From Rhizophagus irregularis (Eukaryota; Glomeromycota; Glomeromycetes; Glomerales; Glomeraceae), in contig NC_089448.1 in the NCBI RefSeq assembly GCF_026210795.1, positions 1,860,001-1,924,000 on the forward strand: DNA of 64,000 nucleotides. Direction: 5' to 3'. Below, piece after piece: positions 9,791 to 46,032 of the stretch (positions are counted from its first letter, which is position 1; the number at the start of each line of letters is the position of its first letter). The position numbers were made by a program, and so were the translations under genes. The notes under the pieces were generated by a model. The model saw only the letters and a program-made list of their open reading frames with translations. It searched no databases and was not told the origin of the DNA.

Positions 9791-9943
9791 TTTTTATATA
9801 TAAACCCTTACTGACCCTTATTCCGACTCTGACCATTTTTTTTTTTTGCTAAAGAAACATACTATAGAAACTACTTTTCCTACATATAAACCTGGTCTAA
9901 ATCGTGATTTTTCGGACTCTATACTCTTGTTTACATTATTTAC

Positions 9944-12088
9944 ATGAGTAGAAACACTCGTTCCAAGTTTTCTCAAAAAATTCTAAAAAATATTGAAAAA
10001 ACATATCATTCTACTACCGACAAAGAAGACATATATAGAACTTTCGCTCCTAACGTTAATAATAACAGAAATAGAAAAATGTCGAATATATCCACAACTA
10101 ACAACAACAATAGTCATAAGACAGCCGAGCCTGCTTTGACTTCACCTTCTCAAACTTCCTCCTCCGTGGAGCAAGTCCCTGGGAATAATTCTTTAATAAC
10201 ACGTGACTCCACTCCCCATTTACCAAATGCACCAATCGTTGAAACGGTTGATGAAATGGAAATAGAAGTTACCAATAATAATGAAACACAACAACTTTCA
10301 GAAGGATCTACATCCATTAATGGCAATCCACCACTAATAGAGGAAATTCCCATGATCGACAACATATTTTCAGCCTCAAATATACAAGCACAAACTTCCT
10401 TTGAAGGGTTTATCCCACGAGATAGTTTCCCACCGAAACTCACAGACAAAGAAATTTTACAAACACTCAACACCATCTTTATCGGAGACAAAGATTTTAT
10501 CAAAGTCAGATCTCTCAAAAAAATGACTTTCAAATTTTACATGATATCTGTGTCGACTAAAGAGAAATTGTCACACCTTATCAAAACATCACCCCCGTCC
10601 CTTAATAAAGTTAAAATTTATGAATATACACAACAAAATATAGATACCTTAATTGAACGAAAACTCCAATTACAAGACAACACCATTATCAAAATTTTAG
10701 ATATCCCCGTCAATTATGATGTCACGTTATTAATAAAACAAATAACTGATGCAACGGGAAAACGAATCACAACTTACAAAGAAACCAAAAAACCACCTCA
10801 AAGAATCCAAAACCGTAACAAAAATGATAAACCAATTTTTATCAAACCAATTTATAAACAATTAATAATCAGCTTTGAGGACAAAGCCGCAGCAGATTAC
10901 TTATTAGCACAAGACTGGTGCTTAGCCATTGAGGACTCAGTAGCCAGAATCTTACCAGGCAATCCAAAACATCCGATATACACACAACGAACCTCAGCTT
11001 TCTATAAAATTACCGGTCTACCTTTAAACACGAACGCAAAAGATTTAAGCCCTTTAGTTGAACATCTAAAGGGTCGTACGTGTACATTTACCCAAACCTC
11101 ACGCTCATCATTTTTCAAAAACGCATTCATATACGTTGACCTGAATGACGTTAAAAAAGATTACACCACAATCACGGGTACAAAATTTGGACAACACACA
11201 ATCTTTATCTTTCCCCATACCAATACCAAAAAAACTTGCAATGTATGTGGAAATCATACACACGAATATAAAAATTGCACTAGTACTGATTTTACCCTAG
11301 ACAAAAATGAACGTAAAATTTTCAGAAGACGTTTCATTACACGTAACAAAGAACGTATTCTTATCAACAAAACTACCAGACAAAACTATAACCACGTCAT
11401 AAGACTCTCTAAAGACAATCCTGGTAATTCAAATGTACAATCCCGCCCTCAACCGAACACACGAGGCAAACAAAGACAAACTTATAATAACACTACAAAT
11501 CACCCGGATAAGACGCATCAGAAGTCTAGTTCGTCCTGGTCCAATCAACAGCTCCCTCAAGAAATCTTAGACAAAATTGCACTTATGGAACAACAAATCA
11601 CTACCTTAACAAACCACGTTAACGTATTACAAGATTCCCACCAAACATTCACGGAGCAATACTCTTCGCACCATCAACAACTAACCACAATTGACACTAA
11701 CATAGCGTTGCTCACACATAGACAAGATAGTCTTGAAAATCAACATAAAACCTTGATGACCCAGATGCAAACGCTCATCAACACTCTACAAGCATCACAA
11801 ACGCCATCCCCCTGACAACAACCAGCCAGAAAAGCCAAACGTACCAGTACCCCATATGAAAAAAATTCTTTGAAGGATGTGAAAAAACGGTTTATCCAAC
11901 CATCCTCTGAATCGGTTATGACTGACAGTGATGCACCCCCACTTTCAGACGAATATTACACCGAATCTGGAGATGTCTCCGATACGGGCACCATTGAAAA
12001 TACATATGAAGCAGCTGAACAAGAAACTTCAGGACAATCGAGTTTCATTCTTAACCCATTTAATTGGGGCAATAAACCTCAGGTTTAA
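9944..12088 (+). CDS. LINE ORF1, nucleic-acid-binding protein with zinc knuckle, one in-frame TGA
   Basis: The frame starts MSRNTRSKFS and runs to a TGA at 11813-11815 (codon 624). It then stays open in the same frame to the TAA at 12086-12088, 715 codons in all. The first ~150 residues are Asn/Thr/Ser-rich and probably disordered. A CCHC zinc knuckle (CNVCGNHTHEYKNC, CX2CX4HX4C) sits at about residues 432-445 and is followed by a basic region. A Gln/His-rich coiled coil covers about 545-620. The part after the stop is short and acidic. Such ORF1 proteins bind the element RNA in the ribonucleoprotein. The TGA could have come from CGA by C-to-T change. Confidence 0.8.
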
Positions 12089-12204
12089 TTTGTGATTCAT
12101 TCTTTATAATCATAAAGAATTTAGACATACCGTTTTGATTCCCCTTATTGTTTTTATCTCAACTCTTGGTTTACATACACCCAATTTCATACATATTTTA
12201 AATA

Positions 12205-15200
12205 ATGTCATACACCAACCTAAATATATCTGATCCCTTTCCTACTATCTCACATTCTTTGTCACAAAATCCTGATCACGTGATTAATGAAGAACATATT
12301 ACAAACTTACACGTGATCAATCAAGATAACATTAATGATAATAATTTTTTTATTGATTATATTAAAATAGGCAGTATTAATATTCGACAAGCCTTTAATA
12401 ACAAACTTAACGACATTATAAATTATTTTGTCGAACACAACTTTGATATCCTTGGTTTAGCAGAAACTAGTCTCTTTGGAGACCAATCAAATACTATTAT
12501 TAACAAACACAAACACCCCACTTTACCTAACAATTTTATATATATAATTCACGACAACTCCGGCGCTAATAAAGGCACTGGAGTCGCCATCATGATTACC
12601 GACAAAATGGAAAAACATCTTCATCATACAGAATTTTCAGAAGGACGTATCATCAATCTTATCTTCGGTTTTAAGAAATCAAAACAACTGAACGTAACTT
12701 GTTGCTACTTACCATCTAGTCCTAAGAATGATGTCACCAAAACCAAAATCAGCGCTGCCTGCGTCGAAAAATTGAACAAATTAATTATTAAATCTAACAA
12801 CACCAAAAATTCATACGCCATTGTTATTGGCGATTTTAATGTGACCACAAAGAATAAATCAGATCCGAATTATCCTTCCATCCGTTTACTTAAAAATAAC
12901 GGATACAAAGATATGATTAAATATCATCAAGAATCCTTAGATAACAACTTTACCCATAGTACAAATAGAATCGATTACCATTATGGAAATAGGAATTTAT
13001 TAGAACAATCAATTCATTCATACACACAATCGATACCACAATCTTTCTTTAATACTGATCACAAAATTGTTATAACCCTTTTAGAAAAAACTTTTTTCGA
13101 CTCAAGAAACAAGGATTTATTTGAAAAGTTCATGAACGTCCTTCCTTTCAATAAACGGAATGATGAAGTTAAGAAAGTCTTCAAATACGATCGAATGACC
13201 GTTGAATTATGGTCCTCTTATACGAACCGTAGTCGTTCAACCTTTAAATATAGATTTTCCAAGGAACCTCAAGAAATTAATAACAATAATACTTTAAACC
13301 GGCAATGGGATCTCTTTGAGAAATGCTTAATTGAACTCAAAGAACATATTATACCACAAAAATCTATTAATTTTAACACATCATCAAACCTAGATTTGCC
13401 TCTTGAACTACGACAAATGAATAATCACGTGATTCTCTTATATCAAGTGAAACAATTTTTAAATTTAAAACATATTAAAATTCGTTTTAAATTATACTTC
13501 ACACCCACACTTTCAACCCTCCACAACATTCCACGACACGTATGGGCCACCTATTATGAAGGATGGATGAAATACCTCCCTCGCTTAAAAATTTTATTAG
13601 ATTTTAATAAATTATCAATCACTTTACCATCAACGGTTACTCCTGATAATTTTGTATCAACAAAGGATGAAATTTATTGATTATATCATACGATGAAAAT
13701 AGCTTACCAATCTGCGTACGATAAATACCTTACCAACAAAATTAGTTCTTATGTCACAGAACGCAATGACAATTTACAACATGATCAAACTAAAATGATT
13801 AACTCTATTTTAAATCGTAAACCACGCCGTATAGTGTTGGACAGACTTTCTTTTACCGACAACAAAGGTGAACAGGTATTTACTAATAACCCAGAGATTA
13901 TAGAAAAAGAAGCCATCAAACATTTCCAATACCAAGCGGGGCTTCCAAATGAAAAGAATATTTGGACTTTAGACTCCCTACCACAAGATTGGAAAGATCA
14001 TTATGATCCTGCTTTACAAAATATTAATGAAGAATGGTGGAATCATTTAACTGAACCAATCACTCTTTTGGACCTTTCCTCCATTTTCAAAAAATTGAAT
14101 AACAACAAAGCGCCAGGTCCTTCCAAAATCACATACGAAGATATCACACATTTACACGAGGACATTTTAATGATCCTCGTCAGAATCTTCAACGCTTGCA
14201 TTACACTTAAAGTGATTCCGGATAAATGGAAACACGCGTTGCTTTTTCCGATACCGAAACCACATGATTGGAATAGTAAACTAACTAACACAAGGCCTAT
14301 AACTCTCCTGGAAACTCCTAGGAAATTATTAGTCGATATTATTTCAACTAGATTAAATCAAGCCCTTTCCAAACACCCAATTTTACAATTCAACAACAAA
14401 GCGGGCGTTCTGGGCCAATCAACCTTAGAGCCGCTTATGATTACACAACACTTAATAGAACATGCGCGCATTAAGAAAAAACCCATTTGGATCGTATTAC
14501 AAGATTTATCAAAAGCATACGATCGCGTCGACCTACGACTATTGAAATTGGCGCTTGAACGCTTAAAGATTCCTGCTATTATTATTACCTTTTTTCTTAA
14601 TTTATTTACAGAAAGACATAATGAAATCATAACCACGAATGGTTTACTGCCATCTTATGCAGTTCTCCAAGGCATTGACCAAGGCGAAGTTGTTTCACCA
14701 CTTCTCTGGAATATATACTACGACCCGATGTTTCATCGCATCAATCAATTAACACATTTACACTACTCCACCTTTGCGACACAAAAGAAAAATTGTCAAC
14801 ATATAGAGAATGATGTCATTCACACCTTTGACATCTCCGTAGTAGGTTATCTCGACGACACTACGTGGTTTGGCTCTTCACAATTGCAAATCGAAGAAAA
14901 ATTATCAATTGCCAATTCTTTTTATGACCTTAATAACATTAAAGTTAATATGGATAAATACAAAATCTTAACTAATGACCGTACCATCAAACAACCGAAT
15001 ATCACCCTCACAATTAATAATCGGCCATACGCAACTCCTGTCACGCCTCGTAACAAAAGCGAACGCATATTAGGTTTATACATTAATGCATTAGATAAAC
15101 ATACGCAAACGATACGAAAAGGCAAACAAATAGTGATGGCTCACTACAACACTATGAAAAACAAAAAATTAACACATCATCATATACAATATATTATTAA

Positions 15201-18009
15201 CAAGATTGTTATACCAAAATTGGAATATATTTTCCAACATACGATCCTTAATTCGAAACAATGTCAATCTTTAATGGGACCATTGAAAAGATTATTCAAA
15301 CAACGTTTGAATCTTCCGTCAAACACGGCGGATAATATTATTTATAACCATATGTTCCAATCTATTAATAATTTTTTTGATATCCAAATGAAATCACAAC
15401 TTAATATTTTAGGTGCACTTTTTAATACACCGGTTCTTCGAGAAATAGCGACTCAGAAAATATATAATACGCTTTCGGAAATCTGGTATCCTACTATTCC
15501 GTCCAATATTAATACCTATTTGGACCATATAGTCAAGCCTACCTATTTAACGCAAGCTTTAGGCTTGCTTAATCAATATGGATTTTCAATTAATTTCACT
15601 TTCGATATTAACATTTTAGGAGGAAATACCCCTATACGAGATTATATGTCAGATCTTTCTGCTGCTGACATTAAATCTCTTAAAGCCAAGAACATTATTT
15701 ACATGGATCAAGTCATTTCATCAGACGGGAACTATTTACTCTCGTGGCATGATGTTAAAAGAAATAATAACAACAATTATAGTGGTCCAATCCCGGCGTG
15801 GTACAAAAATTTAACTGACAATTACGTACTTAGTAATAACTTACGCCTGATCCACCCTCTCAACGATGTTGTTTGCGACATTAATAGAACACATAAATCC
15901 CCTCCAACTCTACCAGATGTTACAACACCCAAATCACAATGGACGATACATTGGAATAATGTACAAAAACAAGTTATCTTTGGAAAGACCTTAATACAGG
16001 AAACAGATCGTTCAACTTCAATTTCTTATTTACAACATTTTATACCCCAACAAACCCATCATAATAATAGTTTAACACCTAAAAAACAATTACTTGGACT
16101 TGTTGCGTGCAAGGGTTGCCTTTTACACTCTTACTATCCACACGACGCTCGTCCGACATGTGTTATCGCAATTAGAACACAAAAATTATTATTATTTAAT
16201 ATTTTTAAAAAATCTTCCTTTGAACACACATCACTTTTAGATTTCTATAATCGTCAGAATTTCGTAGTAGCTACGAAACCTTTTCATACGCTTAGGCATA
16301 TTGCATACGAACATTTTATTAAAATAGATAAATCCCCTTTGAATACCTCTTCACAACGTCCTTTGGACACTATTCTTACACCTTATCCCTCTTTACTTTC
16401 AAATAATATAGATAACCATATTGATCACGCTCTAATTTGTCATCCAGACCTTAAAGAAGAATTAAAATTTGGTGCAAAACAATTAGAATTAGAAAATTTA
16501 TTAACCTTTTATACAGATGGTTCTGTCCAACATATTGGTACAACTCATAGTATTAGTGGATACGGATGGACCCAAGTTCAACCCTTCACGCCGCGAGTCA
16601 AGTTCAGTGGATCTACAGTCTTCTTCCCATCATCTTCCAAAAGTGAAAGCATGGGTATACTCACGGCCCTTATTGTATCTCCTTTCAACTGTAAAATTAA
16701 TATTTACACCGATTCAGCCAACTGCATTACCATTTTTAACACGCGTATGCTATCAGGCGTCGCTAGTCCGCGACAAAAACTGAAACAATCAAATTTTTTA
16801 ATATGGGATTTAATCTTTTTCTTAATTGAAGAAAAGCAACTTTTAGTCTCTTTGTACAAAGTTTCTGGACACAGTAACAACCCTTATAATGATGAAGCAG
16901 ACTTACTAGCAAAAGCTGGTGCTCATGTTATTGAGCCTATTATTGTTAATCATAAATTTTTTGTTAAACATAGTTTAGGTTTCATTTCTTGGAACCGTTT
17001 ACACGTTGTGGATCGCAACGTCAGAAAATGGGCGGATAATGTCATCCAACCTTTAATATTCAATTCGATGGTCAATAATAAAGCCTTATCTCCGATCAAG
17101 CAACATATTATCGATGGTGACATTGATTGGACTTTTACCAATGAATGGTTGAATTTTAACGATCAGGACGTTCCATGTAACGCCAAACTTTCCAAACAAC
17201 AAGGAAGTAGAATTAAAAAATGTAATTTTATATATCCAACAATCGATATACAACAACGCAATTACCCTCGTTTATACCCTATAGGCAGCATACCTTGCAT
17301 TGAATGCGCTAATGCCCGCGACGATAATACGCACGTGGGCTTATGCGAGGAACACTCAATTCATATCAAAAACATATTAATACGAGCTGCTCATGACTTA
17401 CACGACCTTATTATGAAGAATTCTAAGGATGGAAATTCTATTTTGGAAGAGACCATTAAAAATATTTCCCTTTTTAATACTTCTTTTGTTGATGCCTTAC
17501 CACAATCACATCCTGGTTATTTACTTATACACCATTTGGTCCCGAGTGACCTTACTAAAATTTTTATTATTTATATTAATGATAAAAAATTACGATTTTC
17601 CTTATTTTCAAAATTTTTTTCGACTTTAATGTCTTCAATTGATGCACTCATTTGGACGCGTCGTGCTTCCTTAGTTAAACAATGGGAAAGTACTTTATCC
17701 ATCACAAAAAACAAAAAACGATTTTATAGAAAACGACACAAGAATCGAGCTCCTCCTCCTCCTGATCCAGGTGCTCCTGATCACAATTTATCTCCAAGTC
17801 GACATTATAATTCTCGGCACTTCGCCACTATTCCTTATTATAGGGATGGCGGTTTTAATGATAATTTCGCCCATATTCGTTGGACGACAAGTAATTATTT
17901 ACATTCAGGACATTGGACTACTTATAGAGATAATATAGGGTTCAATAATATAGATTTATTTTTAACTTTACAAAATAGTTTTCTTAAAAATGTTTTTGAC
18001 ATTAGATAG
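12205..18009 (+). CDS. LINE ORF2: APE endonuclease - reverse transcriptase - RNase H, one in-frame TGA
   Basis: The frame is 1935 codons long and interrupted only by TGA at 13678-13680 (codon 492). The part after it continues in the same frame. Endonuclease landmarks are IGSINIR (about residue 55), LAETS, GDFN (about 209) and NTDHKIV (about 285). After the stop, counting from the ATG at 13693, the RT palm shows LQDLSKAYDRVD (about 269-280), GIDQGEVVSPLLWN and the catalytic box YLDDT (about 384-388, in place of FADD). RNase H shows FYTDGS (about 938), SESMG, YTDSAN and SGHSNNPYNDEADLLAK, with the expected D-E-D-H/D residues. A CX2CX8HX3C knuckle (CIEC...THVGLC) lies near the C terminus, as in other LINEs. 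The stop separates the endonuclease from the RT, so without readthrough no complete ORF2 protein is made. Confidence 0.88.
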
Positions 18010-28049: not shown

Positions 28050-31000
28050 ATGTCTGACAACACCGAATTTGAAGTTATCAATAATTCAAAAGAATTATTT
28101 AATCGGATTGAAGAAGCCATTGTTACGAATCATTTTAAACAATACGAGTACAAAAATTTCAATAACATTAAAGAAATTGATTCTAGAGAATTCATAAAAG
28201 TTTATCGCGCAAGTTGGAAAAATTCAAGCCAATATGTAACGTTAAAATATTTTTTCAAACTTAACAATACTGTTGTTGAAGAAATCATTCGTGAGGTAAT
28301 TACTAAATATGATTATATACATATACTATTGATTATCATATTCTTAATATTTATACCAGATTTTAAATTATTTTTTAAAAGATTAAATTATATCGAGATG
28401 ATTATTTTCACAATAATATTATTCGCTTTCATGGGATAACAAAGTCTGAGTCAGGTATTTTATAATATTTTGTTGCAATAAAAAAAATTATGATTTAACG
28501 TATTTCTAATAAAAAAAAAAACAATTATATATATTTTTATTTTATCAGAAAATTATGATGTTGGATACTGGTTAGTAATGGAGTACGCTGATGGTGGTAC
28601 TCTTCGAAACTATCTAAAGAAAAATTTTGGTGGCCTCACTTGGGAGAATAAATACAACTTGGCATATCAGTTGACTTGTGCTGTTTTATATTTGCATGAT
28701 AAAGGAGTTGCTCATCGTGATTTGGTAATTTATTAATTATTCGATTACTGAAATTTAATATATTATTTATTAATAGTTGTTTTATAATAGCATTCTAATA
28801 GTGTATTGGTTCACCAAAATACCATAAAGTTGGCGGATTTTGGCTTGTCAAAAAGGATTAAAGAAACATTTAATTCACAATCAAATTTAGAGGATGACAT
28901 AGTTCCCTATATTGATCCAAAAATATTCAATAAACCAGGAAATAATGACAACACGACAAAATTATACACGTTAAATAAAAAAAGTGACGTTTATAGCGTT
29001 GGAATCATTTTATGGGAATTATCTAGTGGGAAACAACCTTTTTATATTGAAGGTGAACAATATGATATTAATTTGGCTGTAAAAATTTCGCAAGGTCTTA
29101 GAGAAAAAATTATTCCTGATACACCTGAAGATTATGTAAACATTTATAGCGGTAATTATATTCTAAATTTAATTGACGGTTCGCCAGTCAAGAATATTTA
29201 TTGTGCCGTTGCAGATAAAAAATTACCGTGCAACAAGATTTTTCACTTATTATTTGACCGGCAAACCATCAATTGATAACAATCATATAGTAATTTCTCT
29301 TGTTTTTAAATTTTTTTTTTTTTAGAATGTTGGAATAATGAACCTGATGATCGTCCAACAATAAAACAAATAGTTGAAAAATTAAAAGCAATTATTAAAA
29401 AATCAGATATAATAACAGAAGAAGATAATCAAACGGACAATTCAATAAATGACAATATTTTATCTAAAAAAGATTTACGTCACAGTATTTGTTATAGTAT
29501 AATAGTGGATGAATTAGTTGATGATATTTTAAAAGATATAAATGAAGGAAAAGAATTGAAAGTAGATATTCTCAATTATAAGTATAATATAAATTTACAA
29601 GAATTTTATAATTGGTTATCAAATAATCAAACATATTCAAAATCTATTTTTTTACTTGGCTATTTTAATTTTTATGGAATAATAATAAGTAAAAATTATG
29701 AAAATGCGTTTAAATTATTTATTAATGCTTTAGAACAAAATAATACATTAGCACAATATTTTATTGGAATATGTTATCAATATGGATATGGAATTATAAA
29801 AAATGAAAAATTATCTTTTGAACATTATAAAAATGTAGCTAGTAATAAAAATTACCCTGCAGGAAAATTTAAAATTGGTTATTTTCATGAAAATGGTATG
29901 GGTACTGTAAAAAATATCAAACTAGCTATTTATTGGTATGAAAAAGCAGCCAATTTAGGAAATGGAAAAGCTCAAAATAATCTTGCTCTAATGTATAAAA
30001 ATGGTGTAGGTTTTGATAAAAATTATAGCAAAGCTATTGAATTATATCAGAAAGCAGCAAATTTAGGTATTACTAGTGCTCAATATAATCTTGCTCTAAT
30101 GTATGAAAATGGTGAAGGTGTTAATAAAGATTATAATAAAGCCGTTGAATTATACCAGAAAGCAGCCGATTTAGGAAGTAGTAATGCTCAAAATAATCTT
30201 GCTTTGATGTATGAAAATGGAAAAGGTGTTAATAAAGATTATAATAAAGCTATTGAATTATATCAGAAAGCAACAAATTTAGGAAATGTTACCGCTCAAT
30301 ATAATCTCGCTATAATGTATGAGGGTGGTAAAGGTGTTAATAAAGATTATAATAAAGCTATCGAATTATATCAGAAAGCAGCAGATTTAGGAAATATTAA
30401 CGCTCAATATAATCTTGCTGTAATTTATAAAAATGGAGAAGGTGTTGATAAAGACTATAAAAAAGCTATTTATTGGTATGATAAAGCAGCTAATTTAGGA
30501 GATAGCACTTCTCAACTTAATCTTGCTATAATGTATGAAAATGGGAAAGGTGTAGATAAAGATTATAAAAAAGCCATTTATTGGTATGAAAAAGCAGCCG
30601 ATTCAGGAAATAGTATTTCTCAATACAATCTTGCTATAATATATGAAAATGGAATAGGTGTCAATAAAGATCATAGTAAAGCCATTGAATTATATCAGAA
30701 AGCAGCAAATTTAGGAAATAGTAACGCCCAAAATAATCTTGCTATAATGTATGAAAATGGAATAGGAGTTGATAAAAATTATAAAAAAGCCATTGAATTA
30801 TATCAAGAAGCAGCAGATTTAGGGTGTATTAGCGCTCAATATAATCTTGCTCTAATATACCAAAATGGGAAAGGTATTAATAAAGATTATAATAAAGCTA
30901 TTGAATTATATCGGAAAGCAGCAAATTTAGGAAATATTAGTGCTCTATATAATCTTGCCATAATGTATGAAGATGGAAAAGGCGTTAATAAAGATTATAA

Positions 31001-33581
31001 TAAAGCCACGGAGTTATATCAAAAAGCAGCAAGTTTAGGAAGTATTAGTGCTCAAAACAACCTTGCTTTAATGTATGAAAATGGAAAAGGTGTTGATAGA
31101 GATTATAGTAAAGCTATTTATTGGTATGAAAAAGCAGCAAAATCAGGATGTATTAATTCTCAATATAATCTTGCCATAATGTACGAGAGTGGAAAAGGTG
31201 TTAATAAAGATTATAATAAAGCCGTTGAATTATATCATAAAGCAGCTGATTTAGGAAGTATTAGCGCACAATATAATCTTGCTCAAATATATAAGAATGG
31301 AGAAAGTGCTAATAGAGATTATAAAAAAGCTATTTATTGGTATGAAAAAGCAGCCAATTTAGGCGATATTACATCTCAACTTAATCTTGCTATAATGTAT
31401 GAAAATGGAGAAGGTATTGATAGAGATTATAAAAAAGCTATATATTGGTACGAAAAAGCAGCTCATTCAGGAAATAGTATAGCTCAATATAATCTTGCTA
31501 TATTATATAAAAATGGAAAAGGTGTTAGTATAGATTATAAAAAAGCTATTCATTGGTATGAAAAAGCAGCCGATTCAGGAGATAATATTGCTCAATATAA
31601 TCTAGCTTTAATGTATAAAAGTGGAGAAGGTGTTGATAAAGATTATATAAAAGCTATTTATTGGTATGAAAAAGCAGCCAATTCAGGAGATATTATTGCC
31701 CAATATAATCTTGCTTTAATGTATGAATATGGAAAAGGTGTTGATAAAGATTTTAAGAAAGCTATTTATTGGTATGAGAAAGCGGCTAATCTAGGAGACA
31801 ATATTTCTCAGTATAATCTTGCTTTAATGTATGAAAATGGAAAAGGTGTTGATAAAGATTATAACAAAGCTATTGAATTATATCAGAAAGCGGCTAATTT
31901 ATGTAGTAATAGTGCTCAAAATGATCTTGCTTCAATATATGAAGATAATAACAAAGTTGTTGAATTATATCAAAAAGAAGCAAATTTGGGAAGTAGCAGT
32001 GCACAGTATAACCTTGCTATAATATACAAATATGGAAAAGGAGTTGATAAAGATTATAAAAAAGTTATTTATTGGTATGAAAAAGCTGCCAATTTAGGAA
32101 ATATAATTGCTCAATATAATCTTGCTTTAATATATGAAAATGGAAAAGATGTTGATAAAGATTATAAAAAAGCTGCTTTTTGGTATAATAAAGCAGCTAA
32201 TATGGGAGATAGAGTTTCTCAATATAATCTTGCTATAATGTATGAAAATGGAAAAGGTGTTAATAAAGATTATAAAAAGGCCGTTGAATTGTATCAGAAA
32301 GCAGCCGATTTAGGAGATAATAGTGCTCAAAATAATCTTGCCCTGATGTATGAAAATGGAAAAGGTGTTGATAAAAATTACAAGAAAGCCATTGAATTAT
32401 ATCGAAAAGCAGCAAATTTAGGAAGTATTAATGCTCAATATAATCTTGCTTTAATGTATGAAACTGGGAAAGGTGTTGATAAAGATTATAATAAAGCCGT
32501 TAGATTATACCAAAAAGCAGCAAATTTAGGAAATAGTAATGCACAAAATAATCTTGCTTTGATGTATGAAAACGAGAAGGGCGTTGATAGGGATTACAAA
32601 AAAGCTGTTTATTGGTATGAAAAAGCCACTAATTTAGGAAGTATTAATGCTCAATATAATCTTGCTATCTTATATGAAACTGGGAAAGGTGTTGATAAAG
32701 ATTATAATAAAGCCATTGAATTATATCAGAAGGCGGCTGATTTAGGAAATATTAATGCTCATTATAACCTTGCTCTGATGTATGAAAATGGAAAAGGCGT
32801 TAAGAAAGACTATAATAAAGCCATTGAATTATATCAAAAAGCAGTAGATTTAGGAAGTATTAGTGCTCAAAATAACCTTGCTATAATTTATGAAAATGGA
32901 AAAGGCGTTGATAAAGATTATAATAAAGCCATTGAATTATATAATAAAGCAGCAAGTTTAGGAAATATCAATGCTCAAAATAATCTTGCTTTAATGTATA
33001 ATAGTGGAAAAGGTGTTAATAAAGATTATAAAAAAGCTATTGGATTGTTTGAAAAAGCGGCAAATTTAGGAAGTATTATTGCTCAATATAATCTTGCTAT
33101 AATGTATGAAAATGGTAAAGGTACTAGTAAAAATTATAAAAAAGCTATAGAGTGGTATGAAAAAGCAGCCAATTCAGGAAATACTGGTGCTCAATATAAT
33201 CTTGCCATGATGTATGAAAATGGAAAAGGTATTAATAAAGATTATAAAAAAGCCATTTCTTGGTATGAAAAAGCAGCTAATTTAGGAAGTAGTGTTGCTC
33301 AAAATAAACTTGCGATTATATATGAAAATGGGAAAGGTGTTGATAAGGATTATAATAAAGCCGTTGAACTATACCAAAAAGCAGCAAATTTAGGAAATAG
33401 CAAAGCTCAATATAAACTTGCTGAAATATATGAAAATGGAAAAGGTGTTAATAAGGATATAAATCAAGCAATATATTGGTATAAAAAATCTGCCAATCAA
33501 GGTAACCAAGTTGCTCAAGATAAGTTAAAATTACCTAAAATTAGGAATAGAGGAAAGAAGAATCCATGTATAATAAATTGA
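28050..33581 (+). CDS. TKL-like protein kinase fused to ~35 Sel1 repeats (1703 aa, 5 exons)
   Basis: Exons 28050-28295, 28382-28454, 28549-28724, 28791-29151 and 29326-33581 join in frame (5112 nt). The kinase domain spans about residues 38-310. Lys66 is the VAIK-type lysine (YVTLK), the catalytic loop is HRDLHSN (Asp164, Asn168), and DFG is at 181-183. The closing CWNNEPDDRPTIKQIVEKL is typical of the TKL kinases expanded in Rhizophagus. The glycine-rich loop has decayed (IDSREFIKVYRASW, no GXGXXG), so activity is uncertain. After a linker, about residues 428-1690 are near-perfect 36-residue Sel1 repeats (AQYNLALMYENGKGV...), a solenoid that scaffolds partners. Repeat 21 is short. The exon 2 to exon 3 join restores the classical IIRFHG...YWLVMEYADGG sequence, which supports this model. 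An AATAAA lies just after the stop, at about 33584. Confidence 0.85.
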
Positions 33582-37724: not shown

Positions 37725-39684
37725 ATGACGGTTTCCGTTTATTTTCGAATAATATATTTATTAATATCTTAACCAGTAAATCTCTACATAATGTCGATTT
37801 TGATAGGTTAGGGCATTCTACAAATCTATTAATTCAAATGTATATAATGAATCTTATCGTAATCTTTGTTACAAAATTTAATTGAACGAGCACGAACGCA
37901 GCAGTAATTATGAGAAACGAAATGAAAGAACAAAAATAATGTTAAAATGAACGCATAGTCTTTTTATTTGTTCATTATGGTTAATTCAAGATCCGGCTAT
38001 AAATCAGTGAAAAAAATGGGGCAAAATTTTGTAGATCATTAATGAAATTTATTTGATTGGCATTTTTGTGTGTGTAAGGTATCACTGCATCCAGTGCAAC
38101 AAAATGAAAATGGTATGCAGCTTTCGAATGCATTATTAATTTCTCTTCCGATAAAAATTAAAAAATGACTTGTCTTTGTGGCGACGGCAGACTCTTATTA
38201 TTTACGAATTTTCACTGATCGACATCCGGATCACGAATTAAATAAGTTTTTAATTAATTTTCTCACGCAAAATATTCGCCGACTACTGGTCATATAAGTT
38301 AATAAATCAGTTTAAGAATTAGGAAAACGTGGTTTTATATTCAGCATTTACAATATTGAAGGATAGCACGTAAAATATAATGATTGCTAAAAACCTGATA
38401 ATAATAAAGAAGTTGTTTTAATTAGGTGAAATTCTTATTATAAATTTGATGTTATTTACTTTATTAAATATAACGGTAGGCTTATTTTGTTTTAATAGGT
38501 TATGACAAGATTTTTCTAATATATAAAACATTTCGAAATCCAGATACTATAGTAATTGATTACGCACCATATTATTCCGTATAATTAAATGGCTCATCAT
38601 TTCTTTCATACAGGAAATATGTTGTTAAATTCTTATTCGCTATGCGGTCATAACTTTTTACGTCGTGTATTCTCAGATATAGAATATGTGGAAAGTTCAA
38701 ATTGGTAATATACTATAAATAAAACAAAAATCGTGGCATAACTGTACTCAAAGTGAGAAAACAAGAAAGTAAATATAATGAATACAATAGTATGTAACGA
38801 TTAACTCGATTAATTCTAAAAAAAGGGATCACATTGACCTGACAAAAAAGTATTGGTTCGAACGTTATTGAACTATCGATAAAAAGTAAATGTTTCATCT
38901 ATTAAATATAATAAATCAACTATTCATTCGAATACAAAAACAACACATTTATCTAAATACTGTGTTCATAGATAGTATATTTCGATATATAGCCATGTAT
39001 ACCTTATTATTATCATTTATTTAACGTAAATAAATTAAATTTTTACGATAAAAAAAAAAAAAGATTATCATTAGTGTTAGCGCTCATTAAATAAAAAAAA
39101 TCATTTTTTTTTTCGAAGTTTGCACTTCGAAATAGGTCAGAACCGTACCTTTGTGAAATTTTTATTTGTTAGGAACATTAAGTTTGAAACTAATTAATTA
39201 TATAGATTGATAATTTTCAATAATGCGTAAGAAGTCACTGAACCAATTACTCGTCTTAATTTTTGATCATGGTATGAATATGAAAATATGGTTTAAAATA
39301 ATCTACTATTTGTTTATCGATTCGATTTTCAATTTTTTAAAAGGCTTATTATTACAAAAGCCTCTCCCAATAAAAGCCACAATTTTAAAAATTTTTTGTG
39401 GCTTATACTTTATTTTGCGCAGATTAAGCCACGTTGTAAAAAAAAAATGATTATGTGTTGAAAATTTTCGTTATCCACGTAAATTATATCTTTAAAATAA
39501 ATAATATCTATATGAATAAAATTTTTTTAATTAATGTGGCACTGCTAATCCTAATCATGGCGCAGTATGGATAAACGTGGCAAAAATATTTTTGTAACGC
39601 CTCCTTTACTTTGCCTTCGTTAATAATAATATGGTTTTCTAAAAAATAAAAAAAAAATATGTGATTTAAAGAAGAAAAATTTTT
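37725..39684. other. AT-rich intergenic DNA
   Basis: I see no gene. About 39343-39430 contains AAAAGGCTTATT and repeated AAGCCAC motifs in both orientations, like 41925-42030, and may be a decayed small element. Confidence 0.4.
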
Positions 39685-39692
39685 TATATAAA
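39685..39692 (+). promoter_or_regulatory. Possible TATA box of the secreted repeat-peptide gene
   Basis: TATATAAA lies about 115 bp before the start codon and is followed by a CCCCTTGAGAAGGGG palindrome at 39693-39707. Other AT-rich stretches nearby make this tentative. Confidence 0.35.
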
Positions 39693-39807
39693 CCCCTTGA
39701 GAAGGGGAGAAAAAAATTTATCAAACAAATTTACGAATAATAATAATAATAAATAAGTAAATAAACGTATATATATATATAGATATAGATATAAAAAATC
39801 CGGAATC

Positions 39808-40993
39808 ATGCATTTAAAATATTTATTGCTGATGATCTTCGCCTTTGGCTCAGCAAGTAAATAAACAATTTTTATAATTTTTAATATGTGTAATATATTA
39901 TGTTTCTTTTTTATTCATATTAATACTAATTTTCAAATATTGAAATTTTTTTAAAATAATTTAGGAATGATACTTGCATTCCCACTAGGTAATTATTTAA
40001 TAAAACAATTAAAATCATTGTTCCTTTCACATAACCCCTATATACATTATTTTTTCATATACAGATAAACGTTGTGGTGGTTACAAGCGGGACGCATATG
40101 GTTACAAACGTGACGCCGAAGCAGAAGCATATGGTTACAAGCGGGACGCATATGGTTACAAACGCGACGCCGAAGCAGAAGCATATGGTTACAAGCGGGA
40201 CGCATATGGTTACAAACGTGACGCCGAAGCCGAAGCATATGGTTACAAACGCGACGCCGAAGCAGAAGCATATGGTTACAAACGGGACGCATATGGTTAC
40301 AAACGTGACGCCGAAGCAGAAGCATATGGTTACAAGCGTGACGCATATGGTTACAAACGCGACGCCGAAGCAGAAGCATATGGTTACAAGCGTGACGCCG
40401 ACCCAGTAAATAAACGCCAAGAAGAGAAACGCCAAGAAGAGAAACGCCAAGAAGAGAAACGCCAAGAAGAGAAACGCCAAGAGGAGAAACGCCAAGAGGA
40501 AAAACGCCAAGAGGAAAAACGCCAAGAGGAGAAACGCCAAGAAGAAAAACGCCAAGAGGAAAAACGCCAAGAGGAAAAACGACAAGAGGAAAAACGACAA
40601 GAGGAAAAACGCCAAGAGGAAAAACGACAGGAAGAGAAACGCCAAGAAGAGAAACGACAAGAAGAGAAACGACAAGAAGAGAAACGCCAGGAAGAGAAAC
40701 GCCAAGAGGAGAAACGACAAGAGGAGAAGCGTGACGCCAACCCAGCAAAGAAACGACAAGAAGAGAAACGTCAAGAGGAGAAACGTCAAGAGGAGAAACG
40801 ACAAGAAGAGAAACGACAAGAAGAGAAACGACAAGAAGAGAAACGACAAGAAGAGAAACGACAGGAAGAGAAACGACAGGAAGAGAAACGACAAGAAGAG
40901 AAACGACAAGAGGAGAGACGTCAAGAAGAAAGACGCCAAGAGGAGAGACGCCAAGAGGAGAAACGTCAAGAAGAGAGACGCCAAGAAGAGTAA
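39808..40993 (+). CDS. Secreted Kex2-type repeat precursor: 11 YGY cores plus 37 KRQEE units (333 aa)
   Basis: Exons 39808-39856, 39965-39988 and 40065-40993 join to 1002 nt; both introns are GT...AG. Exon 1 encodes MHLKYLLLMIFAFGSA, a signal peptide. A short pro-part (RMILAFPLDKR) ends in a dibasic site. Then come CGGYKR and eleven YGYKR units (residues 34-134), each preceded by DA (five) or DAEAEA (six). The spacer DADPVN follows, then KRQEE x21 (141-245), the spacer KRDANPAK (246-253) and (K/R)RQEE x16 (254-333). In yeast alpha-factor, Kex2 cuts after KR, Ste13-type dipeptidyl aminopeptidase removes X-Ala pairs and Kex1 trims KR; here this would release YGY. Synonymous codon changes within conserved units support translation. 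It belongs to the class of fungal KEX2-processed repeat proteins. Whether it is a pheromone-like signal, an effector or a RiPP precursor is open. Confidence 0.85.
40091..40393 (+). repeat. In-frame tandem array coding YGY units (21/33-bp alternation)
   Basis: Units of 21 bp (DAYGYKR) and 33 bp (DAEAEAYGYKR) alternate in the order 1L-2L..., broken once by two successive long units (numbers 6 and 7). This is markedly more GC-rich than the surrounding DNA. Confidence 0.9.
40412..40990 (+). repeat. 15-bp coding minisatellite (KRQEE), 21 + 16 units
   Basis: AAACGNCARGARGAR units occupy 40412-40726 (21 units) and 40751-40990 (16 units), separated by 24 bp coding KRDANPAK. Variation is nearly all at third positions; the only amino-acid change is Lys to Arg in the last units. 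The repeat produces long spurious open frames on both strands. Confidence 0.92.
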
Positions 40994-41096: not shown

Positions 41097-42409
41097 TATG
41101 TAAATTCTTTCTGGTCAAATTAAAGATTAAAACATCAAACGTTAAATATTTGCTATTGTTCTCATATTCATTATGCAATATTATTTCGATAAAATATATC
41201 TAAGTAAATGTATATTCAAAGATTTTTTCTTAAATTTTACCACAAAATTTCAAAACTCTGTATTGTGATTCTATTCTACATGTATGTCTCTAATGATACG
41301 AATTTTTCGAATAAATTTTAAATTTTCTGAAATTAGATGTTTCCTCAAAGTATATTCTATTAACAGCGACCTATATATAATACAGTACAGTATATATCTG
41401 TTTACATGAATAAAAATAAATTTAATATTCACGCATTGTTATAATTTTATTTTATTTTTTAATTCGAACGTAGTTTTTAATTCTTCTTTGTAGTCAAAGG
41501 AGTAGTGATTATATGAAAGGATACGGATTACAATCTATAAGATTGGAGGTCCGGTTCGTAATTTTAGATAGACTAATATATATAATTATAATTCACTCGG
41601 ATCGTTCTATCTCGGAAAATAAAAAAAAATTCTTTTCACTAAAACTTTTACATTCGTTAAACTGCCAACTAACGTTCTGCACAGTACTTCATCTCTATGA
41701 ATCTTTGGACAAAACATAGACAACTAATAATAAAACATATTACCTCACATACCATCATTATCATTGTAAATTATTATAATACATATTTGACTAACTAGTA
41801 TGTTATATTTTGCACGGAAGTCCTCTATTTCAAATAGAGATGGATCATTACGATTATCATGTTCACCATAATATTGACGCGTAGTCTTAATATTGGGACA
41901 AAATTACAGCCATTCTTTTTAAGCCACGTAATAAGCCACGTAATAAAAAGTGGCTGGAGAACTGACAACAAAAGTTATCATAATTTATGTAAATTAAATT
42001 AAGGCTTATATTACATAAGCCATTGGGCTGTTAATAATAAAGACTTCACATTAAATCAGAGATTGTTATCTAATCTTTTTTTTTTTAAAAAAAAAAAAAA
42101 AAAATCCCGCGGGATAACCGTATGATCTTCACAGGCGCTGTTTAAATTAGTAAAGTTCATTAATAATGCAAATCATTTCGAATACCCGCAGCATTACTAA
42201 TTATTATTACTGATGATTTCAAATTTCCATAATAATCTTAGCCCGAATAATCCACAATGGCACAACGGTATTAAATTTTACGCCTATATAGTATGACAAA
42301 GTCAAATGATCTACGGGTCTCAACTAATACGGTATTTAGTGAATTGAAAATATAAGTACAAAAAATTAAACTCTTAAAATTCTAGTAACTCTGTTCTTTT
42401 AATGTTATA
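41097..42409. other. AT-rich intergenic DNA
   Basis: A poly-T/poly-A palindrome lies at 42077-42103. About 41925-42030 has repeated AAGCCACGTAAT and GGCTTAT motifs. I see no gene. Confidence 0.4.
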
Positions 42410-45400
42410 ATGGACATAATAAAAGAGGTATGCGTGAGAATTATTTTTTTATATATGATGTAATGATTAAAAAATTACAAAATACTTTGTCATAGATTGG
42501 CGGCTCCAAACCAATCAATGATCGACAGGCATGCGATATTATTGACCGAATCCGCAGCAGAAATTTGAGATTACCTTCCGATTATTGTTCGCTAAAAAGT
42601 TTGTTAGACGATCGTTCCAATCCGTTGTCAAAAAATGTTCTCAACTCCGCATTAGAAGTACTATCTGACTCATCAATTTTTGGACTTTATGATGAAGAAA
42701 AATCGGTCATACTAGAGTTTCACCTTCGTACTTTACTGTCCACAATAAATGCTGCTTCTCGCTCTGAAATTTGCCTAACGCATACTTCACGAGATGATCT
42801 TTTTGCTCAGCTAATCAAATTTGCAAAATTCTACATCTCAGGAGATGATTCACGATCTGAAGATATTGAAGCAATTAGTATTGATGAAAAAATTCTCATG
42901 AGGAATTATAATAACGATTTTTTACTCTGGATTCTTCGAGATGCAGTTCATGCTATGTCTGATAACGTTAATCAAAAATCGGAAGCAATAGACCTCACAT
43001 CAATAAATGGTGTAAAAGATGAAAATATAAGCATTACGTCCGATATTAATTCTCAATTACAAGAGATATTTAGCTTCAAGAATCCGATATCATTATGGTA
43101 TTCACAATGGAAGAAATTAGATACTATTTTACAAAATTTAATCAACTTAAATAAGGATAAAAATGATTTAGAAATACAGGAACCAGATGAGAGATTCTTA
43201 CTTGAGCAGTTGTGGTCATACGCTTCAGTTGAGTTAATACAATTTCGGAATGTTAAGGATGATATAACTCAAAATACAAACGCTTTAAACGCTTTACTGA
43301 GAAATGATCCTATAGCTCGTTCATTATGGTTTGGAGTGCTTGACTTATCTCAAGAACTTGCAATGATAACTCAATCTGTCCAAAATTTAGTTTTCTTATA
43401 TTATTTAGGTTTACGATCATTACAACATGCGCCTAATATCTACATTCGATCAAAGGCGGTAGAAGTTTTGATTATCATATCGAAGAAACATAAAATTTTT
43501 AATTCTCAACTTAATATCGATTTTCAAGATATGTTGAAAGTATTCAGAGAGATTAGTTCAAACGATGCAGTAAAATTTCAAAAACTTTTCAATATAATCT
43601 CGAGACGTTGTCTTGCGACCAGAAACGTATCAGAACTTACCTTGAACTTATATAAAAATATAAAAAAGGATGATAGACTACAAAAAACAATTTATGATAT
43701 ATTGGCAGCTGAGTTAACATGTCCTATTACTCAAGATATGAGTGAACAATTTCAAAAATTACCATGTGGTCATTTTCTTAGTGTTCAAGCGGTAAAAACT
43801 TGGTCAAACGAATGTCAGAATAAGAAAAAATTGTTTTCATGTTGTCTATGTCGAAAAGAGTTTCAATATGAAGAAGTTCAAAATGAGAAAATCTCTGCAA
43901 TGCATCAAGGTCTTTATCAACAACTCGTTTTAGTAAAAAATATATCAAACATTCAAAACACAAGTGAGTTCAAGACAATTAACGGTGAATTGACACCACT
44001 TTCACTCCCTAATATCGCTATTAACCAAGATCAAAGAAAGAAAAAGACGCTTGGATTATTGAAAAAAGCACATCCTGCATACTCTAAAGCAAAAGCTGCA
44101 ATAAAGGAAGAAAAATTTCCTGTTGCAATATTTTGGTTAAATCGGTTACTAGAAAATTGGCCGGATAGTTATAGTATTCGTTGTGAACGTGCTTACGCTC
44201 TAAAACAGCTTGGTGACTTTTATCAATCAATTTGTGATCTAAATATTGCAATTCACTTTAAGCCCAACAAACCACATGCTTGGTGTCTTCTTGGATCTGT
44301 ATATCATCAAATGGAAAATAACAATCTTGCACTTTCGCATGTTACTCAAGCTCTAAATTTGGAGCCAACCAATCTACAAAGCTTATTGACACGTGGATTA
44401 ATATATATAAATATGAACAGGTTTAATGATGCATTACAGGATTTTGATGCTCTTTTGGCCTTTTATTCTCAAAAAATGATATTCTCTCGATCAACTTCAA
44501 AAGTTACCTCAATTATTCAAAAGTTACATCTTGAGAAGTTTGCATTTAATAATCCTGCAAATAAAGTAGTTATCGTTGAATGTTTAAGAAGACGAAGTGG
44601 ACTTTATTACAAAAAGAACAAATTTCAACTTGTGAAACAAGATTTGGATCGATTATTACGATTGGAACCCAAAGATCGTGATGCATTATTACTCCGTGGA
44701 AAATCACATCAATTAATGAATGAATTTGATTTGGCTATAAAAGATTTTAACAAAGCATTAATGATGAATCCTAAAGATTCATGGGTAATTAATAGAAGAG
44801 CAAGGTGTTATGCAGAAATCGGAAAACGAGAAGAAGCTATTAATGATTCTAATAGAGCATTAAAATATAATCCTAGTAATGGTTATTTTTACACTTCTAG
44901 GAGCTCTATTGTTACATCTTTCGGACATTTGGAACAAGCATTAGAATATGCCAACCTTGCTTCCATAATCGATATGTCAAATAGCGAAAATGCTTATCGT
45001 CTTGCGTGGGCGTACTTTCATTTGAAACGATACGGTGATGCCGTACATGAAATTAATCTTCCAGTATATGCGGACGACGATGATCCAGAGAATGCATGGA
45101 GATGGTCACTCAGTGGGTTCATTTTACATTTTTTTGAAAAAGAACATGATAATGCTCTCTCAAATTTTAACAAAGCAATTGAACTAGATCCAGATTTAGT
45201 GGATATATATTGTTATAGGGGACAATTTTATACGTTTCGCGGAGAATATGATAAAGCACTCAAGGATTTAAATCAGGCAATAGATATGTTACCCAATGAA
45301 ACTTATTTATACCAGAATCTGGGTCACTTATATTTCGAAATGGGAGAATATAATTTAGCTTTAAAAGCTTTAAATAATGCAGATAGATTATTATCAGGGT

Positions 45401-46032
45401 ACCTTTCAAATTTTTCGAACAAAGTTGCCAGATCTCGTATACTTACATATCGTGGAATGACTTATCATAAACTTGAGAAATATACCGAAGCATTAGAAAA
45501 TTTAAATAGAGCGATTGGTATTCAAGTAATTAATCATGATGTGATGGCAATTGCTGAACGTGGATCACTCTATTATTCAATAGGTGAAGCGGACAAAGCA
45601 TTGATTGACTTAGAAGAGGCGTTAAAAATCATGCCAAAAAATGATTACATGTGTAAAAGTTTGCGTAATGCATATACGATTAAAGGAAAAATTTATTTTT
45701 CTCGTGGACAACAAATTGAAGCTATGGATGCAATAGAAAAAGTGAAAACACTTGAATCAAAATTTCAAAACCAATGGGGTACAAATACTGAATTGTCCAA
45801 GGAATGCATAGAACAAATCACTCAGATCAAGGGTATCGGACTTGACTTATTGAGAGAGATACGTGCTGGATTCGAGAACGAGAAAATCATTTTTGATCAA
45901 CATACTTTTAATAAATTATTATCTCATTGGGAGAAAGTTCTTGAAATTGACTCATGTGATCCATTGTCTAGCTCCATGGTTTCGGCGCTCCGTTTAATGC
46001 GGAAGAATCATCAGAATCTTATTAAACCATAG
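42410..46032 (+). CDS. RING/U-box-like TPR protein (1184 aa, 2 exons)
   Basis: A tiny first exon (42410-42427, MDIIKE) joins across a 68-bp intron to exon 2 (42496-46032), which opens IGGSKPINDRQACDIIDRIR. Without it the open frame would lack 29 residues of plausible N terminus. Residues 1-400 are an alpha-helical region that I do not recognise. At about 415-465 lies a RING-like module (CPITQDM, LPCGHF, CCLCRKEF). The first Cys pair is CPIT rather than CPIC, as in U-boxes, while PCGH and CLC are RING-like. From about 520 to 1110 there are many tetratricopeptide repeats (for example AHAWCLLGSVYHQM-type and DIYCYRGQFYTFRGEYDKAL). A role as an E3 ubiquitin ligase with a TPR substrate or chaperone dock is inferred, not shown. 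It may be zinc-poor or degenerate. Confidence 0.82.

What the first reader, a model, noticed from the sequence alone, without database searches (positions are those of the whole stretch)
39808..40993. Alpha-factor-style precursor predicted to release an 11-fold Tyr-Gly-Tyr peptide
Seen: joining two short exons to the third gives a signal peptide, then eleven YGYKR units, each preceded by DA or DA-EA-EA. Known: Kex2 cuts after KR, Ste13-type dipeptidyl aminopeptidases remove X-Ala pairs and Kex1 trims C-terminal KR, as in yeast alpha-factor. Inference: the mature product is YGY, far shorter than known mating pheromones. Tyr-rich cores released by KR cutting also occur in dikaritin RiPPs (ustiloxin type), where UstYa (DUF3328) oxidases crosslink them, so a modified or cyclic tripeptide is an alternative. 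No UstYa or Ste2-like gene is recognisable in this window.
Basis: partly seen in the sequence, partly recalled or inferred. Interest (0 to 1): 0.87.

Follow-up and report, generated by a model that had tools for sequence, protein, structure and literature searches.

The report
Mycorrhizal fungus precursor of ultra-short peptides
A gene of the root-symbiotic fungus Rhizophagus irregularis looks built to be cut, the way yeast makes its mating peptide, into eleven copies of a three-residue peptide and dozens of a second one, and it belongs to a family of gene copies in this genome that share a similar start but carry different tiny peptides.

Summary
Window 39808-40993 encodes a precursor with exactly 11 YGYKR units, 5 preceded by DA and 6 by DAEAEA. 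Of 12 distinct changes between repeat copies, 11 are synonymous; the twelfth, K to R, keeps the dibasic site. The host matches Rhizophagus irregularis. YGYKRD (Arg as CGN) occurs there at six loci only, one a relic; in the four other intact genes 64 of 64 dibasic-ended units end in YGY. The larger result: at least 53 loci match all or part of an upstream-leader-intron module and carry different short cores, about half ending in an aromatic residue. Relatives occur in R. diaphanus and Glomus cerebriforme. Kex2-, Kex1- and Ste13-type protease families are present; STE3 is found; STE2 and UstYa gave no match, with silent controls. R. irregularis KEPs with STE13 signatures and Tyr-rich peptides were reported in 2019 (PMC6339444): the kind is known. 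Peptide release, mature sequence and function remain undemonstrated.

The parts
39530..39807 (+). upstream region homologous to that of other family members
   Evidence: (query 39530-39960): 26 matches, 22 merged loci including itself; 12 of the 22 are also hit by other members' leaders
39808..39856 (+). exon 1: leader MHLKYLLLMIFAFGSA, phase-1 donor
   Evidence: homologous to the family leader exon MQLKHLLLIFGFTMALA
39857..39964 (+). intron 1, 108 nt
   Evidence: inferred
39965..39988 (+). optional 24-nt exon 2 (RMILAFPL with shared codon ends)
   Evidence: splicing inferred
39989..40064 (+). intron 2, 76 nt
   Evidence: inferred
40065..40090 (+). start of exon 3: dibasic site, then unit CGGYKR
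40091..40393 (+). YGY array: 11 YGYKR units with DA or DAEAEA spacers
40394..40990 (+). DADPVNKR, then QEE array: 37 QEE units split by KR/RR, interrupted by DANPAKKR
40991..40993 (+). stop codon TAA

Best explanation
This is a Kex2-processed repeat protein (KEP) gene of Rhizophagus irregularis. The signal peptide sends the precursor into the secretory pathway; a Kex2-type protease cuts after each KR/RR; a Ste13-type dipeptidyl aminopeptidase removes the X-Ala/X-Pro pairs; an S10 carboxypeptidase trims the basic pair, releasing linear YGY (11 copies) and, from the second array, QEE (37 copies, the Gln possibly cyclised). The gene belongs to a large family in which one upstream-plus-leader module precedes different very short peptides, about half of them ending in an aromatic residue; the most likely role is extracellular signalling, either between hyphae or towards the root. 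Shown here: architecture, core conservation, family, protease-family genes. Inferred: splicing, cleavage, mature sequence, linear state, role.
For: Architecture and unit counts. 11 of 12 distinct changes between repeat copies are synonymous, against 2.6 expected; the one replacement, K to R, keeps the dibasic site. In the four other intact YGY genes 64 of 64 dibasic-ended units end in YGY (7 of them as VYGY), in the window 11 of the 12 units of the first array (the other is CGGY); over the 77 YGY triplets Gly uses three codons and the second Tyr two, and 70 of 77 spacers consist only of X-A/X-P pairs, 7 being DAEPV. At least 53 loci match the leader module in whole or part. 5 of 22 predicted family precursors equal database proteins letter for letter, and a YGY gene with the same leader and junction but 4 units is annotated in another R. 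irregularis record, P0013. Subtilase plus proprotein-convertase P domain at C32, two DPPIV_N plus S9 loci at C5 and C12, S10 carboxypeptidase exons. One STE3 gene. Mushroom KEP peptides, some with STE13 signatures, have been detected by mass spectrometry (PMC9769878, passages).
Against: No transcript, peptide or receptor evidence for this gene. The leader was judged by sequence and conservation only; no signal-peptide predictor was run. QEEKR repeats could also form a charged helix that resists cutting. No STE2 match, so the receptor of such peptides is unknown. 4 of 22 family models have no dibasic site in the cargo, and several matched loci gave no coherent precursor.
Confidence: 0.62

Rival explanations
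1. Modified peptide (dikaritin-like RiPP): YGY is released by Kex2 and cross-linked at its tyrosines by UstYa (DUF3328) oxidases and a tyrosinase.
For: KR-flanked Tyr-containing cores are the dikaritin precursor plan; PMC6339444 itself raises cyclisation for R. irregularis KEPs (passages).
Against: No PF11807 match in the genome (but the control genomes were silent too, so sensitivity is unproven); PMC7329392 states that no DUF3328 proteins were detected in the phyla other than Ascomycota and Basidiomycota (passage; it may refer to the surroundings of KEP genes). Seven of the 16 window frames of 130 aa or more were scanned with Pfam and contain no such oxidase. PMC6339444 states that STE13 signatures are absent from known cyclic-peptide precursors. 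Tyrosinase genes were not searched.
Confidence: 0.1
2. Sexual pheromone in the strict sense: YGY is the alpha-type mating signal of this fungus, read by a pheromone receptor.
For: Spacer and cut-site pattern as in yeast alpha-factor; a STE3 gene is present; PMC3834313 reports a STE3 orthologue and pathway but found no pheromone genes (passages). A yeast mating factor was a weak hit of the window precursor, E 0.58, with 52% identity over 15% of the query (P0004).
Against: No MF_alpha domain in exon 3, no STE2 match (silent control); STE3 receptors bind farnesylated a-factor-type peptides (recalled); five genes with the same core and other members with other cores are unlike a single mating signal; PMC7490403 reports no up-regulation of pheromone genes when isolates coexisted (passage).
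Confidence: 0.15
3. Host-directed peptide: the products act on the plant root as effectors or hormone mimics.
For: PMC5293756 reports a group of putatively cleaved R. irregularis secreted proteins with very short repeats, mostly expressed in planta (passages); whether this gene is among them could not be seen.
Against: No plant peptide was compared; no expression data for this gene.
Confidence: 0.25
4. Repeat expansion without peptide function: a low-complexity secreted protein with slippage-prone repeats, not cut in vivo.
For: Tandem DNA repeats are frequent in this window (58 rows) and the QEE array resembles a charged helix.
Against: Nearly all changes synonymous, dibasic sites kept in the window's units, X-A/X-P spacers, and the same core in four other intact genes and in other records.
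Confidence: 0.1

Closest known systems
KEX2-processed repeat proteins (KEPs) of Rhizophagus irregularis, Le Marquer et al. 2019 (PMC6339444)
   Same: Signal peptide, near-identical short units split by KR, STE13 signatures, Tyr-rich peptides; the paper reports that most R. irregularis KEPs have STE13 signatures.
   Different: In the passages and sections read I saw no description of a shared upstream-leader module, of the YGY gene set, of a second QEE array or of the aromatic C-terminus; the supplementary tables, which may list this gene, could not be opened.
Saccharomyces cerevisiae alpha-factor precursor (MFalpha1)
   Same: Signal peptide, KR sites, EA/DA spacers, Kex2/Ste13/Kex1 processing plan.
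   Different: Core of 3 residues instead of 13 (recalled), 11 units, no MF_alpha domain match in exon 3, no STE2 match, member of a large gene family.
Dikaritin RiPP precursors (ustiloxin, phomopsin)
   Same: Secreted precursor with KR-flanked short Tyr-containing cores.
   Different: No UstYa/DUF3328 match here; STE13 spacers present here.
Agaricomycete KEPs with STE13 signatures (PMC9769878)
   Same: Same architecture; the detected Lentinula and Pleurotus peptides end in W; pyro-Gln peptides occur in that study.
   Different: Longer cores; peptides detected by mass spectrometry, which is lacking here.

Membership tests
KEP (KEX2-processed repeat protein) | N-terminal signal peptide | tested here: inconclusive
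   Hydrophobic leader ending G-S-A, homologous to the family leader; no predictor run.
KEP (KEX2-processed repeat protein) | Repeated near-identical motifs separated by KR/RR/KK | tested here: met
   51 dibasic sites, 11 YGY and 37 QEE units.
KEP (KEX2-processed repeat protein) | Actual cleavage by Kex2 | not testable with these tools
   A Kex2-like gene is present; cleavage itself is not testable.
Alpha-type mating pheromone | STE13 signature (XA/XP pairs after the cut site) | tested here: met
   All 11 window YGY units; 70 of 77 YGY units over five genes. The CGGY unit and the QEE units lack it.
Alpha-type mating pheromone | MF_alpha Pfam domain | tested here: not met
   (exon 3 only): one sub-threshold Antistasin match, E 0.81.
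Alpha-type mating pheromone | STE2-type receptor in the genome | tested here: inconclusive
   no match, but the control genomes were silent; STE3 was found by the same method in the same genome.
Alpha-type mating pheromone | Role in mating | not testable with these tools
   Needs experiment.
Dikaritin RiPP | UstYa (DUF3328) gene near the precursor | tested here: inconclusive
   No PF11807 match in the genome (silent control); 7 of 16 large window frames scanned without it.
Dikaritin RiPP | Cross-linked Tyr product | not testable with these tools
   Needs mass spectrometry.
Leader-sharing peptide family described here | Homologous upstream region, leader exon and first intron | tested here: met
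   for the 12 best of 22 members compared the score exceeds all 30 shuffles. Against it: simple global identity of the 150 upstream bases is 0.59 against 0.57 shuffled.

The most novel reading that the evidence does not exclude
Rhizophagus and its relatives own a peptide language: a family of at least 53 loci, several in clusters, in which one regulated leader module exports interchangeable peptides of mostly 2 to 6 residues, about half of them capped by an aromatic residue, with cores differing among genes and apparently among isolates while the processing signals stay fixed. YGY would be its most repeated word, used for hyphal self/non-self recognition or for talking to the root.
Probability: 0.3. 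Interest if true: 0.85.

Novelty: new member of a known kind. Interest (0 to 1): 0.6.

Why it matters
Arbuscular mycorrhizal fungi colonise most land plants, but their peptide signals and mating signals are poorly known; PMC3834313 (passages) found a STE3-type pathway without any peptide ligand gene. A set of conserved tripeptides that can simply be synthesised, and a leader module that finds family members by sequence, make the question directly testable.

Tried and rejected
Pfam scan of exon 3: nothing above threshold. Single-sequence protein searches gave five hits each, among them unrelated repeat proteins, three R. irregularis relatives (P0003, P0007, P0010) and one yeast mating factor at E 0.58; no YGY gene was returned, perhaps because of composition correction. 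The profile search worked; it scored only the 7986 candidates sharing most words. L011 (C22) was checked as a sixth YGY locus and looks like a relic: two units in different frames and no leader seen. The other short YGYKR matches among L001-L006 and L014-L018 are single hits, not arrays; the list was cut, and with a longer pattern gave the whole count.

Identity by segment: upstream 0.73, exon 1 0.85, intron 0.78, exon 2 0.63 (medians among members other than the window). I do not use exon 2 as a clean contrast because spacers are shared and the shuffled controls differ in level (0.58, 0.42, 0.58, 0.22). In the same call the window against others gave upstream 0.59 (shuffled 0.57), exon 1 0.71 (0.37), intron 0.73 (0.64): its upstream homology rests, not on this measure.

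Rows dropped: for the locus count I copied by hand 40 of the 82 rows (left out: rows matching only the repeat end of the query, inside known YGY arrays, and one 40-base row next to a counted locus), 40 of 41 rows and all 26. Some matches cover only part of the module, so the 53 are not 53 proven genes. Of 30 family loci (L061-L083, L090, L091-L096), 21 gave the 22 precursor models; L070, L071, L073, L078, L082, L090, L092, L093 and L096 gave no coherent model (L078 and L082 overlap). L019, L024, L025, L038 and L058 gave none either; that scan was narrow, so this does not show that they are broken. Four of the 22 (L067, L074, L075, L077) have no dibasic site in the cargo; L069 has an in-frame stop after five units. 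The database core count began with 34 proteins, skipped 5 identical to models, and kept pieces of 2-10 residues, some of which contain leftover leader; the model core count includes fragments such as N, VN and AK. Both treat related cores as independent.

Full report
What is there. The window is C20:1860001-1924000 of a 146.7-Mb genome in 32 contigs. Five predicted proteins from this genome equal database proteins letter for letter, among them P0012, labelled Rhizophagus irregularis DAOM 181602 = DAOM 197198; I therefore take the host as R. irregularis. The gene runs from 39808 to 40993 on the + strand. Joined, it gives MHLKYLLLMIFAFGSA, with or without RMILAFPL, a dibasic site, CGGYKR, then 5 DAYGYKR and 6 DAEAEAYGYKR units in mixed order, DADPVNKR, 21 QEEKR, DANPAKKR, 15 QEE[KR]R and a final QEE.

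Splicing. Exon 2 (39965-39988) is 24 nt, so inclusion and skipping both keep the frame. The upstream region, exon 1 and intron 1 align with other family members; of the 12 best of 22 alignments, 7 end at 39947-39963, next to the first acceptor, and 5 run on to 39976-40018. The mature peptides do not depend on it.

Selection. Comparing repeat copies inside the window, 12 distinct changes were seen, 11 synonymous against 2.64 expected from one-step changes with transitions weighted two (binomial P 5.6e-7). The one replacement is AAA to AGA, K to R, which leaves a dibasic site. Copies of a tandem array are not independent, so the P value is a guide.

The YGY genes. The codons of YGYKRD, with Arg as CGN, occur at 67 sites in the genome, in six loci: the window (11), C2:1754929 (6), C20:2223296 (17), C24:1408209 (17), C24:1712019 (14) and C22:3313698 (2, a relic); the reversed pattern occurs once. 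In the four other intact genes all 64 units that end in a dibasic site end in YGY, 7 of them as VYGY; in the window 11 of the 12 units of the first array do, the other being CGGY; two of the four genes end in tails without YGY. Over 77 YGY triplets the first Tyr is always TAT, Gly uses GGC, GGA and GGT, and the second Tyr TAT and TAC. Spacers differ (DAEPEA 34, DAEAEA 10, EA 9, DAEPV 7, DAVPEA 6, DA 5, others 6) but 70 of 77 are made only of X-A/X-P pairs. P0013, another R. irregularis record, is a YGY gene with the same leader and junction but 4 units; P0031 and P0038 carry YGY among other cores.

The family. A 261-base query made of upstream DNA, leader exon, intron and the start of the cargo exon of the C24 YGY gene hits 39 merged loci; a second leader hits 40; together 53 distinct loci, in whole or part. 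This is a lower bound for matches, because only 40 candidates were scored each time, but not a count of intact genes. The window's own upstream and leader hit 22 merged loci including itself, 12 shared with the other searches. Clusters lie on C16, C17 and C20. I built 22 precursor models besides the window; 18 have at least one dibasic site in the cargo. Cores include YGY, EDFN/KDFN, QHY/QRY, QLSY, GNY/LNY, FGAF, SRSYSY, LVAV, WGAF and HWSPIW. The EDFN gene (L066) shares 93% identity with the YGY query over bases 1-215, that is upstream, leader and intron, and the match ends about 12 bases into the cargo exon. Of 38 distinct cores in the 23 models, 18 end in F, W or Y, against 13 of 131 other core positions (Fisher P 1.5e-6). 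Among 38 further cores from database relatives, 24 end so, against 23 of 165 (P 2.5e-9).

Breadth. The profile search returned 45 proteins at E up to 1: 31 named R. irregularis, 2 R. diaphanus, 2 Glomus cerebriforme, 2 Acaulospora colombiana (weak, E 0.02 and 0.26) and 8 without an organism name (my count of the table). A G. cerebriforme protein has a WGY unit (P0035). The R. irregularis names carry prefixes such as RhiirA4, RhiirA5 and RhiirC2, which I take for different isolates (recalled).

Machinery. Frames with a subtilase domain and a proprotein-convertase P domain lie together at C32, DPPIV_N with peptidase S9 at C5 and C12, and S10 carboxypeptidase exons at C2, C15 and C19. Which of them are the true Kex2, Ste13 and Kex1 was not tested by phylogeny. 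STE3 is present, STE2 gave no match, UstYa gave no match. The control genomes were silent in all three, so absence of STE2 and UstYa is not proven, although the STE3 result shows that such receptors can be seen here.

Neighbours. Seven of the 16 window frames of 130 aa or more were scanned with Pfam: a reverse transcriptase/RNase H frame, a protein kinase piece and a TPR protein next to the gene (42496-46032) were found, three frames gave two or more families, four gave none, and no oxidase was seen.

Literature. PMC6339444 (passages and two sections) already says that R. irregularis has many KEPs, mostly with STE13 signatures nearly identical to yeast, rich in Tyr, and asks about cyclisation. 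PMC5293756 (passages) reports expressed R. irregularis proteins with very short cleavable repeats, mostly in planta. PMC7329392 (passages) lists a KEP type shared by Rhizophagus, Diversispora and Trichomonascus and reports no DUF3328 in phyla other than two. PMC3834313 (passages) found STE3 and the pathway but no peptide pheromone gene. PMC7490403, PMC8786786, PMC6960344 and PMC9769878 were read in passages. In seven text searches and the passages read I met no description of the leader-sharing family or of a YGY peptide, but supplementary tables, which may list this gene, could not be opened.

Judgement. It works like an alpha-factor precursor; by architecture it is a KEP; it is not shown to be a mating pheromone, and nothing found here supports a dikaritin beyond the Tyr-containing core. 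The single gene is a new member of a known kind; the shared leader module with changing, often aromatic-capped ultra-short cores is the part that a specialist may not expect.

Noticed in passing
window 40418-40990: Second array of 37 QEE units split by KR/RR without STE13 spacers; would give QEE or pyroGlu-EE, or a charged helix if uncut.
   Followed up: partly
L020 (C1:7315072-7318086, - strand): Another KEP-like frame with a different leader and repeated YRGGGGQ-KR units with EA/AD/EP-type spacers.
   Followed up: no
L026 (C3:3196165-3199179, - strand): A KEP-like frame with long Tyr-, Lys- and His-rich units ending SSYKR.
   Followed up: no
L066 (C16:3898264-3901478): Family member whose upstream, leader and intron DNA is 93% identical to a YGY gene but whose cargo is EDFN/KDFN repeats: apparent exchange of cargo under one leader.
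   Followed up: partly
L074 and L075 (both on C7): Two family members about 0.9 Mb apart with the same predicted 49-residue product and no dibasic site.
   Followed up: no
window 9908-18009: Frames of a LINE-like element (named by eye); reverse transcriptase and RNase H confirmed in 13681-18009.
   Followed up: no
window 29310-33581: Very long repeat protein that looks Sel1-like by eye, behind a kinase piece, with 108- and 324-base repeats.
   Followed up: no
window, about 39374-39404 and 41921-41955: Short inverted AAGCCAC/GTGGCTT motifs on both sides of the gene, seen by eye; possible small mobile element.
   Followed up: no
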